Assembly (NCBI RefSeq): GCF_025642135.1
Contig: NZ_CP106793.1
Span: 4,034,001-4,098,000 of the forward strand
Direction: 5' to 3'
From: Streptomyces cynarae
Lineage (GTDB): Bacteria > Actinomycetota > Actinomycetes > Streptomycetales > Streptomycetaceae
DNA: 64,000 bases
The position numbers and the translations under genes were made by a program. Below are positions 32,316-34,898 of this stretch, piece by piece (the stretch's first letter is position 1; every line of letters begins with the position of its first letter). The notes beneath the pieces were generated by a model that worked only from the letters and a program-made list of their open reading frames with translations, ran no database searches and was not told the DNA's origin.

Positions 32316-32485
32316 ATGGATCGTCGACGCTCAGGGGGCTCACAGGCAGGGGCCTCGGGAACAACCAACGCTCAGCTTCCGTGACCGACTGCCAGCAATT
32401 CCCAAGGTTTTCACAGCCCCCGTTTGCAGTTCCTTGCCGTTTTGCGGTCCCGGGCCGTGTAAGTTCTTCCGTGTCGGGCGGCGAA

Positions 32486-32538
32486 GGAATTCCCGGGACA
32501 AGCGATCCGGAATTCCCGCTCCGTCCGCCGAGAATTCT
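32486..32538 (+). promoter_or_regulatory. Three phased GAATTC-centred palindromes upstream of the Pro/Lys-rich peptide gene
   Basis: GGAATTCC at 32486-32493, GGAATTCC at 32509-32516 and AGAATTCT at 32531-32538. Centre spacings are 23 and 22 bp, about two helical turns, so all three face the same side of DNA. A TAAGTT box at about 32459-32464 precedes them, which places them near or just after a transcription start. They could be a cooperative operator or folded leader RNA. Confidence 0.5.
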
Positions 32539-32578
32539 CGCACCACGGCAATATCGAGAAACCCGCAAGGAGACGGAA

Positions 32579-32707
32579 ATGAGCTTCAAGAAGCTTGCCC
32601 CGCTGCCCCCGAAGCCCAAGGCCAAGCAGCTCCCGCCCCCGCCGAAGCCGAAGAAGAAGCACCAGCCGAAGCCGCTGCCCCAGCCGCTGCCCGGCCACGA
32701 CCACTGA
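32579..32707 (+). CDS. Small Pro/Lys-rich peptide (42 residues)
   Basis: ATG at 32579 with AAGGAGACGGAA just upstream, a strong RBS at ideal distance. The product begins MSFKKLAPLPPKPKAK, continues with PPPP and KPKKKHQPKP blocks, and ends PLPGHDH. It has 14 Pro and 10 Lys in 42 residues, no Cys, no acidic residue except Asp41, and no signal peptide. An intrinsic terminator starts 24 bp after the stop, so it is a monocistronic unit. An ABC exporter gene follows. I do not recognise the family; it may be a secreted or membrane-active cationic peptide, a modified-peptide precursor, or a nucleic-acid-binding peptide. Confidence 0.68.
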   Translation: MSFKKLAPLPPKPKAKQLPPPPKPKKKHQPKPLPQPLPGHDH

Positions 32708-32730
32708 ATCCGGTAATCCGGTAACCGCGA

Positions 32731-32764
32731 AGAGGGCCGACGGGTACACCGTCGGCCCTCTTTC
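32731..32764 (+). terminator. Intrinsic terminator of the small peptide gene
   Basis: AGAGGGCCGAC at 32731-32741 and GTCGGCCCTCT at 32751-32761 form a perfect 11-bp stem with a 9-nt loop, followed by TTT. It separates the peptide gene from the ABC exporter. Confidence 0.85.
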
Positions 32765-32855
32765 GCGCTTTTCCCGGCCGATTTCGGCTGCATTTCACAG
32801 CCTGTGCCGAGATCACTCAAAGGGCCGACCAATCCCCGTGACAGAACCTCTGGGC

Positions 32856-34898
32856 ATGACCAGGACTGATCAGTACGAGGACCACGCGGACGAGTACGCG
32901 GACCGCGAGGAGAACGACACCCCCACGATCCCCGCCCGCACCGCCTTCCGGCGCTTCTGGCCGATGACCAGGGGGCTGCGGGGCCGGCTGGCGATCGTCT
33001 GGGGGTGCACGGTGCTCGCCGCGCTCGCCGAGACCGCCGCCATCCTGCTGTTCAGCGAACTCACCGACCACGCGCTGCAGAAGGGCTCGCTGAGCGCGTT
33101 CTGGGCGCCGGCCGCCGAGTGGCTCGTGGTCGCCGTGCTCGGCGCGGCCATCGGGTACGCGGGCAACTCCCTGGCCACCTGGATCACCGAGCGTTTCGTG
33201 ATGCGGCTGCGCGAGCACGTCTTCGACCACGTCCAGCAGTTGCCGCCGCACTTCTTCCAACGCCACCGGCAGGGCGACCTGCTGTCCCGGCTGACCGGCG
33301 ACGTCGAGGCGATCGAGACGATGGTGGTGTCCGGGCTGGTCGGAGCCGCCTCGGCCGCTTTCAGCGCCGTCTTCTACGCGGCCGCCGCGTTCTGGCTGCG
33401 CTGGGACCTCGCGGCGGCGACCTTCGTACTGGCGCCGCTGTTCTGGCTGGCCGCCCGGCGCTTCTCGGGAAGCATCAAGACGGTCTCGCGCGAGGGCCGG
33501 GTCGCGGACGGCGCGATCACCTCCGTGGTGGAGGAGTCGCTGGGCAACATCGTGCTCACCCAGGCGTACGACCGCCGCGCCGCCGAGCGGCGGCGGCTCG
33601 GGCAGGAGGCGAACGCCTGGTTCCGGGCGTCGGTGCGCTCGGCCCGACTGAGCGAGTTGTACGAGCAACTCGTGCAGGTCATCGAGACCGTGTGCGTGCT
33701 CACGGTGATCGGGCTCGGCGCCTGGGAGATCTCCGCGGGGCGGATGACGCTCGGCCAGTTGCTCGCGTTCGCGGCCTTCCTCGGCTACCTCTACCCGCCG
33801 GTGCGGGGCCTCGCGCAGCTCGGGCTCACGGTGACGGCCGCGACGGCCGGGGCCGAACGGCTGATCGAGATCCTGGACGTACGGCTGGCGGTGAGCGATC
33901 CGGCGCGTTCGGACCGGGCGCCGGCGGGGCGGCCCGACGGGTCGGTGGAGGTGCGGGACGTGTACTTCCGCTACCCGGGGGCGGACCGGATGGCGTTGGA
34001 GGGACTGTCGTTCTCCGTGCGCCCCGGCGAGTTGGTGATCATCACCGGACCGAGCGGCGCCGGTAAGTCCACGGTCTCCAAGATGCTGCTGCGCTTCTAC
34101 GACCCCGACTCCGGCGCGGTGTTCCTCGACGGAACCCCGATCGGCGACTTCCCGCTGGCACGGCTGCGCGAGTACGTCACGCTGCTGCCGCAGGAGACCC
34201 TCGTCCTGCACGACACGGTCCGCGCGAACATCGCCTGCGGCCGGCCCGGCGCCGGCGAGCAGGCGATCATCGAGGCGGCACGGGCGGCGGACGCGCACGA
34301 CTTCATCATGCGGCTCCCCGAGGGGTACGGGACCAAGGTCGACCCCAACTCCGCCCGGCTGTCCGGCGGTCAGCTGCAACGGCTCGCGATCGCGCGCGCC
34401 ATCCTGCGCGACGCGCCCGTCCTCGTGCTGGACGAACCGACGACGGGCCTGGACGCGATGGCGGCACGCCGGGTCGTCAAACCGCTGCGGCGCCTGATGA
34501 CCGGCCGTACGACGATCATGATCACGCACGATCTGAACCTGGCGCCCGACGCCGATCGCATCCTCGTCGTCGACCAGGGACGCATCGTCGAGACGGGCCG
34601 CCACGAGGTGCTGCTGGCGTGGGGCGGAGCGTACTCCCGGCTGCACCGCTCGCAGAACAACGTGAACATGGACACGGCGGAGCTGCGGCTGCCGCTGTTC
34701 CCTGAACCGGCGGAGGTGCCCGCAGCGGTTCCGGCGGAGTACGCGGCCGGGGCCCCGGCGGGGCAGCAGGTCGGCCGGCCGGCACCCGACCCGTACGTGC
34801 CGTACGGGTTCCCCGGGAAATCCCCCGGGGCCGTGCCCCACCAACTCCCGGACGGCCGCCCGCTCTTCCGTGACGAGCGGCCCCGGCACGGAGGCTGA
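32856..34898 (+). CDS. ABC exporter, fused membrane and ATPase domains
   Basis: A 680-residue half-transporter likely working as a dimer in the cytoplasmic membrane. An acidic N-terminal tail (about 1-35) precedes a six-helix ABC membrane domain (about 40-330, with coupling segment LPPHFFQRHRQGDLLSRLTG) and an ATPase domain (about 365-605). The ATPase has Walker A GPSGAGKST, signature LSGGQLQRLA, Walker B VLVLDEPTTGLD and switch His in ITHDLNL. The C-terminal 75 residues are Pro/Ala-rich. Type IV exporters of this shape move lipids, drugs or peptides. The start ATG at 32856 has no clear RBS; a GTG at 32838 is an alternative. It follows the small cationic peptide gene. Confidence 0.9.
   Translation: MTRTDQYEDHADEYADREENDTPTIPARTAFRRFWPMTRGLRGRLAIVWGCTVLAALAETAAILLFSELTDHALQKGSLSAFWAPAAEWLVVAVLGAAIGYAGNSLATWITERFVMRLREHVFDHVQQLPPHFFQRHRQGDLLSRLTGDVEAIETMVVSGLVGAASAAFSAVFYAAAAFWLRWDLAAATFVLAPLFWLAARRFSGSIKTVSREGRVADGAITSVVEESLGNIVLTQAYDRRAAERRRLGQEANAWFRASVRSARLSELYEQLVQVIETVCVLTVIGLGAWEISAGRMTLGQLLAFAAFLGYLYPPVRGLAQLGLTVTAATAGAERLIEILDVRLAVSDPARSDRAPAGRPDGSVEVRDVYFRYPGADRMALEGLSFSVRPGELVIITGPSGAGKSTVSKMLLRFYDPDSGAVFLDGTPIGDFPLARLREYVTLLPQETLVLHDTVRANIACGRPGAGEQAIIEAARAADAHDFIMRLPEGYGTKVDPNSARLSGGQLQRLAIARAILRDAPVLVLDEPTTGLDAMAARRVVKPLRRLMTGRTTIMITHDLNLAPDADRILVVDQGRIVETGRHEVLLAWGGAYSRLHRSQNNVNMDTAELRLPLFPEPAEVPAAVPAEYAAGAPAGQQVGRPAPDPYVPYGFPGKSPGAVPHQLPDGRPLFRDERPRHGG

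What the first reader, a model, noticed from the sequence alone, without database searches (positions are those of the whole stretch)
32486..34898. Pro/Lys-rich 42-residue peptide gene with phased leader palindromes next to an ABC exporter
The unit has its own strong RBS, an intrinsic terminator and three GAATTC-centred palindromes 22-23 bp apart in the leader. The product is 14/42 Pro and 10/42 Lys, has no signal peptide, and is followed by a type IV ABC exporter. A dedicated peptide-export pair, or a PR-type (proline-rich) antimicrobial or modified peptide system, is possible; no modification enzyme is nearby, so this is speculative. Proline-rich peptides of such composition often bind ribosomes or nucleic acids.
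Basis: partly seen in the sequence, partly recalled or inferred. Interest (0 to 1): 0.72.

Follow-up and report, generated by a model that had tools for sequence, protein, structure and literature searches.

The report
Polycationic peptide with dedicated ABC exporter
A 42-residue lysine- and proline-rich peptide gene in a Streptomyces chromosome belongs to a widespread, apparently undescribed family of tiny, mostly positively charged peptides that sit beside one particular kind of membrane pump, which most likely carries them out of the cell.

Summary
In detail: a 42-aa peptide ORF (32579-32707; 14 Pro, 10 Lys) with a good ribosome site, three GAATTC palindromes 22-23 bp apart, a strong hairpin, then a type IV ABC exporter (32856-34898). 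Of 246 Streptomyces genomes, all 19 with the orthologous exporter have the peptide, and it was detected in no other. More distant exporters of the clade are mostly preceded by other short, low-complexity, mostly basic peptides, up to five tandem copies. Bodies vary (Lys/Pro, Asn/Arg, Arg/Asp, Gly/Arg, His-rich), but most start MSFxK[ILV]xP. None of 16 other PF00664 exporters in this genome has such a neighbour. The clade carries acidic transmembrane-domain residues that these mostly lack, as expected of a polycation path. No third shared gene was found. Best reading: a secretion pair; the exporter, without C39 protease, exports polycationic peptides recognised by their N-terminus. Export and function are inferred; the antimicrobial idea is untested. 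The phased triple palindrome is local, but at least one GAATTC stands in 49 of 53 leaders.

The parts
32410..32416 (+). TTCACAG box upstream of the peptide promoter, conserved among type A leaders
   Evidence: alignment of 53 leaders, >90% conserved
32457..32477 (+). Promoter/start box GTGTAAGTTCTTCCGTGTCGG; related boxes (TANTGTTTTCC-N-TGTCG) precede many type C and D peptides
   Evidence: only match at up to 3 mismatches in the 9.36-Mb genome (reversed-pattern control also gave 1); conserved; box of one of five hand-made patterns before the first peptide in 74 of 97 loci
32487..32537 (+). Three GAATTC palindromes (32487-32492, 32510-32515, 32532-32537), likely operator in the 5' UTR
   Evidence: at least one GAATTC in 49 of 53 type A leaders, mean 1.23 vs 0.07 expected
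32567..32572 (+). Ribosome binding site AAGGAG
32579..32707 (+). Type A peptide gene, 42 aa, Pro/Lys-rich, N-terminal signature MSFKKLAP
32730..32762 (+). Hairpin (14-bp perfect stem), probable intrinsic terminator between peptide and exporter
   Evidence: consensus scan did not list it
32856..34898 (+). ABC exporter, 680 aa, type IV half-transporter (probable homodimer), no C39 peptidase
32856..32924 (+). Acidic, variable, low-confidence (probably disordered) N-terminal tail of the exporter (residues 1-23)
32997..33794 (+). Transmembrane domain (residues 48-313) carrying the clade-enriched acidic residues E59, E112, E154, D184, E226, E244, E277, E291
33996..34445 (+). Nucleotide-binding domain (PF00005 match); Walker A, LSGGQ and Walker B inside it, H-loop just after (34521)

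Best explanation
The locus is a two-gene secretion module. A dedicated promoter makes a short polycationic peptide in excess; a hairpin after the peptide gene limits transcription into the exporter gene. The exporter, an MsbA/TmrAB-like homodimer without a peptidase domain, recognises the peptide in the cytoplasm through its conserved N-terminus (MSFxK[ILV]xP) and its positive charge, and moves it out through a cavity with clade-enriched acidic residues. Outside, the peptide acts through bulk composition (polycation binding to polyanions), which would explain why the body can be Lys/Pro, Arg/Asp, Gly/Arg or His-rich while N-terminus and exporter are kept. Shown here: gene architecture, co-occurrence, synteny, shared N-terminal signature, acidic residues, no other shared partner found. 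Inferred: promoter strength, export, recognition, stoichiometry, extracellular role.
For: 19 of 19 genomes with a >=85% identical exporter TMD have the type A peptide, and it was detected in no other of 246. Strong type B hits occur only in the two genomes with the 79% identical exporter. By coordinates 53 of 54 type D hits lie beside an exporter, the other beside a shortened one. 95 of 111 clade loci meet a fixed small-basic-ORF criterion against 0 of 16 other PF00664 exporters of the window's genome. Selected by composition alone, 101 of 133 unique ORFs start M[SAG][FL]; K5 in 101, P8 in 103. Tandem copies lie between promoter box and hairpin, before the exporter. Types A, B and D each fit one origin on the exporter tree. 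Acidic TMD residues: E59 97% vs 6%, E154 100 vs 6, E277 97 vs 0, E291 88 vs 0, D184 82 vs 0 (40 clade rows vs 16 controls). D/E in six TM segments median 7 vs 3. No third gene found shared.
Against: No transcript, secretion or activity data. There is no recognised secretion leader, and the peptide could stay inside. Clade exporters are related, so the charge comparison is one evolutionary contrast, not 110, and the 12 positions were chosen because they are acidic in the clade. The acidic residues are also kept in exporters beside which I saw no peptide (L212, L216, L217, L227, L231, L235: 7-12 of 12), and in L236, whose peptide is net acidic (9 of 12). No recognisable peptide was seen at L212, L216, L217, L218, L227, L231, L235, and composition alone selects an ORF in only 114 of 147 loci. 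The model is of middling confidence (pLDDT 67) and does not show which residues face the cavity. The acidic N-tail is not charge-matched to the peptide (rho +0.33, wrong sign) and is missing in most type D exporters.
Confidence: 0.6

Rival explanations
1. The peptide stays in the cell as a small regulatory subunit of the exporter: the basic peptide docks on the exporter (in type A on its acidic N-terminal tail) and tunes transport of some other substrate, as small proteins do for other transporters.
For: 51 of 53 type A exporters have a net acidic N-tail (median -7; start codons picked automatically) beside a peptide of +8 to +12; tail of the window exporter is low-confidence/disordered; no signal peptide seen; peptide and exporter type co-vary.
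Against: Most type D exporters have almost no N-tail although type D peptides are in more genomes than type A (34 vs 18 of 246); charge magnitudes do not track (rho +0.33); up to five tandem peptide genes per exporter (L169) suit a cargo better than a subunit; peptide bodies change composition completely.
Confidence: 0.2
2. The peptide is an intracellular polycation (nucleic-acid, ribosome or polyphosphate binding) and the exporter is linked for an unrelated reason.
For: Composition resembles histone H1 tails (one UniRef label 'Histone H1'); no secretion leader.
Against: Near-obligate linkage to one exporter clade in several genera; the only profile hit of types A and D away from a full exporter sits beside a shortened one; the exporter clade has special acidic transmembrane-domain residues.
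Confidence: 0.09
3. The ORF is a regulatory leader peptide: slow translation of Pro/Lys or Arg runs controls read-through of the hairpin into the exporter gene (attenuation).
For: ORF, hairpin and exporter stand in that order in the window and in the loci printed; PPPP and KKK stretches are slow to translate (general knowledge).
Against: An N-terminal signature, not one stalling motif, is what the types share; tandem repeats of complete peptide genes precede one hairpin; in 32380-32780 the hairpin arms pair with each other and no competing upstream partner was listed; pN<pS over the ORF.
Confidence: 0.06

Closest known systems
Leaderless bacteriocins (aureocin A53 / lacticin Q group) with ABC transport genes
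   Same: small, highly cationic, no leader, sometimes several core peptides per operon, ABC export nearby (PMC11580447, passages read)
   Different: those are about 51-52 aa and Trp-bearing with a shared tertiary structure, commonly with PH-domain proteins; here low-complexity, no Trp in the window peptide, no shared partner gene found; activity unknown
Double-glycine peptide exporters (PCAT1 / bacteriocin_ABC, TIGR01193)
   Same: type IV ABC fold, peptide cargo encoded next door; PCAT1 core is among the Foldseek hits
   Different: no C39 peptidase domain, no GG leader in the peptide; TIGR01193 scores 252 against a cut-off of 524
Proline-rich antimicrobial peptides (apidaecin/oncocin type; recalled)
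   Same: Pro-rich cationic linear peptide
   Different: only some of the peptide types are Pro-rich; no uptake or ribosome evidence; bacterial origin
MsbA / TmrAB / P-glycoprotein-like exporters
   Same: closest solved relatives by sequence and fold (TM-scores about 0.5)
   Different: clade-enriched acidic transmembrane-domain residues, neighbour peptide gene; lipid A is not expected in Streptomyces (general knowledge)
BldC direct-repeat operators of Streptomyces
   Same: two of the three GAATTC sites read AATTNNNNC as in the BldC consensus (PMC5859096, passages read)
   Different: 22-23 bp spacing instead of one helical turn; sites are palindromic; binding untested

Membership tests
Type IV ABC half-transporter exporter | PF00664 + PF00005 with intact Walker A/B, LSGGQ and H-loop | tested here: met
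Type IV ABC half-transporter exporter | transmembrane helices and fold like MsbA/TmrAB | tested here: met
   (pLDDT 67; Foldseek probability 1.00, TM-scores about 0.5, rmsd about 9 A)
Double-glycine (class II) bacteriocin system | C39 peptidase domain fused to exporter | tested here: not met
   Pfam scan lists none; ABC_membrane match starts at residue 48
Double-glycine (class II) bacteriocin system | leader ending in GG/GA | tested here: not met
   no GG in the window peptide; some type A relatives have GG only near the C-terminus
RiPP precursor | modifying enzyme encoded nearby | tested here: not met
   no neighbour shared across peptide groups but one pair (L179/L186) in 31 loci with about 3-5 kb flanks, ORFs of 130 aa or more; window neighbours are TIGR03084 and RhtA-like
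Leaderless bacteriocin | peptide active as translated | not testable with these tools
   needs bioassay
Leaderless bacteriocin | Trp-bearing core of the aureocin A53 type | tested here: not met
   no Trp in the window peptide; feature from PMC11580447 passages
Sec-secreted protein | hydrophobic signal peptide | tested here: not met
   GRAVY -1.40, no hydrophobic stretch (read by eye, no signal-peptide program run)
Proline-rich antimicrobial peptide | kills by binding the ribosome after uptake | not testable with these tools
   needs assays
BldC regulon | AATTNNNNC direct repeats at helical-turn spacing | tested here: inconclusive
   motif present twice, spacing 22-23

The most novel reading that the evidence does not exclude
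A large, undescribed actinobacterial secretion system for ribosomally made polycations: an ABC exporter clade with an anionic conduit recognises an N-terminal MSFxK[ILV]xP tag and exports low-complexity peptides whose function depends on composition rather than sequence, acting on extracellular polyanions (teichoic acid, DNA, polyphosphate, silica) as a ribosomal counterpart of epsilon-poly-lysine. The N-terminus could then serve as a portable export tag for arbitrary cationic peptides.
Probability: 0.3. Interest if true: 0.87.

Novelty: new variant of a known kind. Interest (0 to 1): 0.74.

Why it matters
Peptide genes of about 40 codons are easily missed; where the databases name these at all, they are called hypothetical, with one 'Histone H1' label. 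A whole family of them, tied to one exporter clade from Streptomyces into other actinobacterial families, would be a new class of secreted bacterial peptide and a new way for an ABC exporter to choose cargo (short N-terminal tag plus charge, no protease). It makes testable the question of how low-complexity cationic peptides cross membranes, and gives candidates for new antimicrobial, surface-coating or polyanion-binding peptides.

Tried and rejected
Charge pairing between peptide and acidic exporter tail as a general rule: rejected, since tails and peptides are not matched in size (rho +0.33) and most type D exporters lack the tail. Sigma-70 promoter with consensus hexamers: none found. Rfam element in the leader: none credible (best E 0.027, a snoRNA family far under its threshold). 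Structured 5' UTR RNA: fold not clearly better than shuffles (z -1.14). BldC operator: only a lead. Cyanophycin-associated transporter (NF052233): scores 340 against a cut-off of 880, rejected as membership.

Literature: ten searches in all. Seven aimed at the family and showed no description of it in their listings; one search matched 2,755 papers of which 8 were listed, so it is no proof of absence. Peptide strings gave 0 papers. The other three were on BldC, silaffin-like polycations and leaderless bacteriocins. A listing (PMC2614493, listing only) suggested the silica/polyanion idea; one search added nothing. PMC13118837 was looked at in passages only; those passages do not treat the family.

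Rows dropped before counting: 18 of the 78 loci (L080-L097), distant exporters not titled Streptomyces or Actinobacteria; 12 weak hits (E 5e-4 to 0.0096, six with an internal stop) were not counted as type B, 10 of the 14 genomes with a match had only weak compositional hits (E 0.010 to 0.083) and were not counted. Prefilters scored only some candidates per genome (29, 9, 27 and 31 at most), so presence counts are lower bounds; in fact missed G014. The counts were read by eye. In the tree L206 and L208 were labelled 'none seen'; later showed a GTG-started basic ORF in both.

Damaged copies were described only: L033 (peptide reading frame disturbed), L064 (peptide truncated, MAG), L136 (first peptide degenerate, second intact), L140 (peptide start missing), G193/L237 (exporter internally shortened).
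Full report
WHAT IS THERE. The described unit is present at the stated coordinates. The ORF 32579-32707 encodes 42 residues with 14 Pro and 10 Lys. Upstream are a box GTGTAAGTTCTTCCGTGTCGG (32457-32477), three GAATTC palindromes and AAGGAG. Downstream is a hairpin with a 14-bp perfect stem (the 91-nt stretch around it folds at -52 kcal/mol, z -5.9), though with a short T-tract that the consensus scan did not list. The exporter at 32856-34898 has the catalytic motifs, ABC_membrane and ABC_tran domains and no C39 peptidase in the Pfam scan. Its closest solved relatives are P-glycoprotein-like exporters, MsbA and Sav1866 by sequence, and MsbA, TmrAB, TM287/288 and PCAT1 core by fold (model pLDDT 67, TM-scores about 0.5).

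IS IT MORE THAN CHANCE. Two GAATTC 14-18 bp apart occur in this 9.36-Mb genome only here, and the promoter box occurs only here at up to three mismatches (the reversed pattern also hits once). In 47 aligned type A peptides the mean column identity is 70%, and pN is below pS in 94% of 1068 pairs with more than two synonymous differences, median ratio 0.61. The leaders of type A loci hold 1.23 GAATTC on average against 0.07 in simulated sequences, with at least one in 49 of 53. Three sites at 22-23 bp spacing are found only in the window and L020; L032 and L037 have pairs at 23 bp, L021 and L053 have two at 45-46 bp, and L065 has three unphased. So the palindrome is a conserved operator-like element, and its phased tripling is local.

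THE PEPTIDE IS TIED TO THE EXPORTER. An exporter query against GTDB genomes kept the best 80 of 200 matches, 78 distinct loci, of which the 60 titled Streptomyces or Actinobacteria (L020-L079) were examined. 53 of these 60 have an intact type A peptide upstream on the same strand. L057, L061 and L077 have another peptide there (type B, MSFR[VI][IV]APL...). L033, L046 and L064 show a disturbed, contig-cut or truncated type A peptide, and L079 is only a partial exporter match. In 246 Streptomyces genomes the type A profile hits 18; the 19 genomes with a >=85% identical exporter transmembrane domain are these 18 plus G014, which also has the peptide. Strong type B hits occur only in the two genomes whose exporter is 79% identical.

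A WIDER FAMILY. Exporters at 64-79% identity in other Streptomyces are preceded by type B, C and D peptides (type D: MSFHKIAPVKK...KRRPVGHKG and similar), in one to five complete tandem copies: five in L169, four in L174, three in L178 and L194. Others carry Arg/Asp-rich (L185, L186, L188), Gly/Arg-rich (L189-L192), His/Lys-rich (L195, L196; exporter 47% identical) or His/Gly-rich (L197) peptides. A type D profile gives 54 hits in 34 of 246 genomes. By coordinates 53 are beside an exporter, and one lies beside an internally shortened exporter frame. Of 26 further loci of the family inspected by eye, the 4 from Streptomyces all had such a peptide, and so had 18 of the 22 from other genera (none seen at L212, L216, L217, L218); of 11 loci from other families of the class, 8 had one (none seen at L227, L231, L235; the one at L236 is net acidic). 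L200, L202 and L204 (another genus of the same family) hold a type A-like and two type C/D-like peptides in front of one exporter (layout of L200). Three class-level loci (L228, L230, L232) have a type A-like peptide such as MPLKKILPPPPKPKKHKKPLPPPLPKKPFHG.

CONTROLS. With a fixed criterion (28-75 aa, low entropy, at least 20% K/R/H, ribosome site, within 1 kb) 95 of 111 clade loci are positive, against 0 of 16 other PF00664 exporters of the window's genome. Of the 16 clade failures, 12 have an intact peptide just outside the criterion (L057, L061, L077, L134-L136, L144, L159, L166, L177, L181, L191); L033 and L140 are damaged, L046 and L198 are cut by a contig end. When ORFs are chosen by composition alone, without asking for any start motif, 142 are found in 114 of 147 loci; of 133 unique ones 101 start M[SAG][FL], 101 have Lys at position 5 and 103 have Pro at position 8. 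These include a few overlapping or alternative starts and some near-copies, so they are not independent.

NO OTHER PARTNER. Among 31 loci of six peptide groups, with about 3-5 kb of flank and ORFs of at least 130 aa not overlapping the exporter, no gene was shared between groups apart from one pair, L179 and L186; smaller genes were not tested. The window's own neighbours are a TIGR03084 protein on the other strand and an RhtA-like transporter. On a tree of 69 exporters types A, B and D each need one change, the Arg/Asp and Gly/Arg groups three each, and all labels together 15 changes against 47 in shuffles (quick tree, support of 79, 99 and 68 for A, B and D, with long-branch warnings elsewhere). 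The peptide kind is thus largely inherited with its exporter.

MECHANISM. The order promoter box, peptide(s), hairpin, exporter suits a cargo made in excess over its transporter. The exporter clade carries acidic transmembrane-domain residues that the 16 other exporters mostly lack: E59 (97% of 40 clade rows, 6% of controls), E154 (100, 6), D184 (82, 0), E277 (97, 0), E291 (88, 0), E226 (97, 19), E112 (95, 31). Over 12 chosen positions, 38 of 40 clade rows have 9-12 acidic residues, L233 and L234 have 5 and 6, and controls have 1-6; 12 further clade rows have 7-12, among them six beside which no peptide was seen. Acidic residues in six predicted TM segments have median 7 in 110 clade rows against 3 in controls, and net TMD charge is +1.5 against +10. 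This fits a path for polycations, with the caveats that the clade is one lineage, the positions were picked for being acidic, and I could not see which residues face the cavity. The shared N-terminus with a changing body is the pattern expected of a recognition tag with variable cargo. Export itself is inferred.

WHAT SPEAKS AGAINST. No expression or secretion evidence exists here. The acidic N-tail of type A exporters (median net -7, 51 of 53 net acidic) suggested electrostatic docking, but tail and peptide charge are not matched (rho +0.33) and most type D exporters have no such tail, so this is at most a type A refinement. One class-level peptide (L236) is acidic. A few exporters of the clade have no visible peptide.

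RELATION TO KNOWN SYSTEMS. It works like a dedicated bacteriocin- or peptide-type ABC export pair but fails the defining features of the double-glycine class (no C39, no GG leader) and of RiPPs (no modifying enzyme found), and lacks the Trp-bearing core described for aureocin-like leaderless bacteriocins (PMC11580447, passages read). Seven paper searches aimed at the family showed no description of it in their listings. NCBIfam and Pfam gave no match for the peptides tested (two, five), and the exporter reaches no curated NCBIfam cut-off among the 25 best of 195 shown. The match of two GAATTC sites to the BldC consensus AATTNNNNC (PMC5859096, passages read) is a lead on regulation only.

Noticed in passing
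L169:6090-6979: Five complete tandem copies of a type D peptide gene (36-38 codons) before one exporter, some nearly identical: recent local duplication.
   Followed up: partly
window 32487-32537; L020 leader: Tripling of a GAATTC operator-like site at 22-23 bp spacing seen only in the window and L020; most relatives have one site 41-68 bp before the start codon.
   Followed up: partly
window 32820-32830: AAGGGCCGACC repeats the 5' arm of the hairpin downstream of it, just before the exporter gene (by eye).
   Followed up: no
L185, L186, L188, L190, L192, L209: Arg/Asp- and Gly/Arg/Tyr-rich short peptides before the same exporter clade, with a composition reminiscent of RGG proteins or cyanophycin; L189 and L192 have a different upstream box, TTGTTG, 17 bp, TAGTGTCG.
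   Followed up: no
L237 (G193:C14): Intact type D peptide gene beside an exporter frame shortened to 331 aa, in a genome that also has an intact type A pair.
   Followed up: partly
L216, L217, L212, L227, L231, L235: Exporters of the clade with 7-12 of 12 acidic signature residues but no recognisable peptide within about 1 kb upstream.
   Followed up: partly
several genomes (G149, G033, G011): Type A and type D modules lie about 160-210 kb apart on the same contig, suggesting an old duplication, while L200 still has both peptide kinds in one cluster.
   Followed up: no
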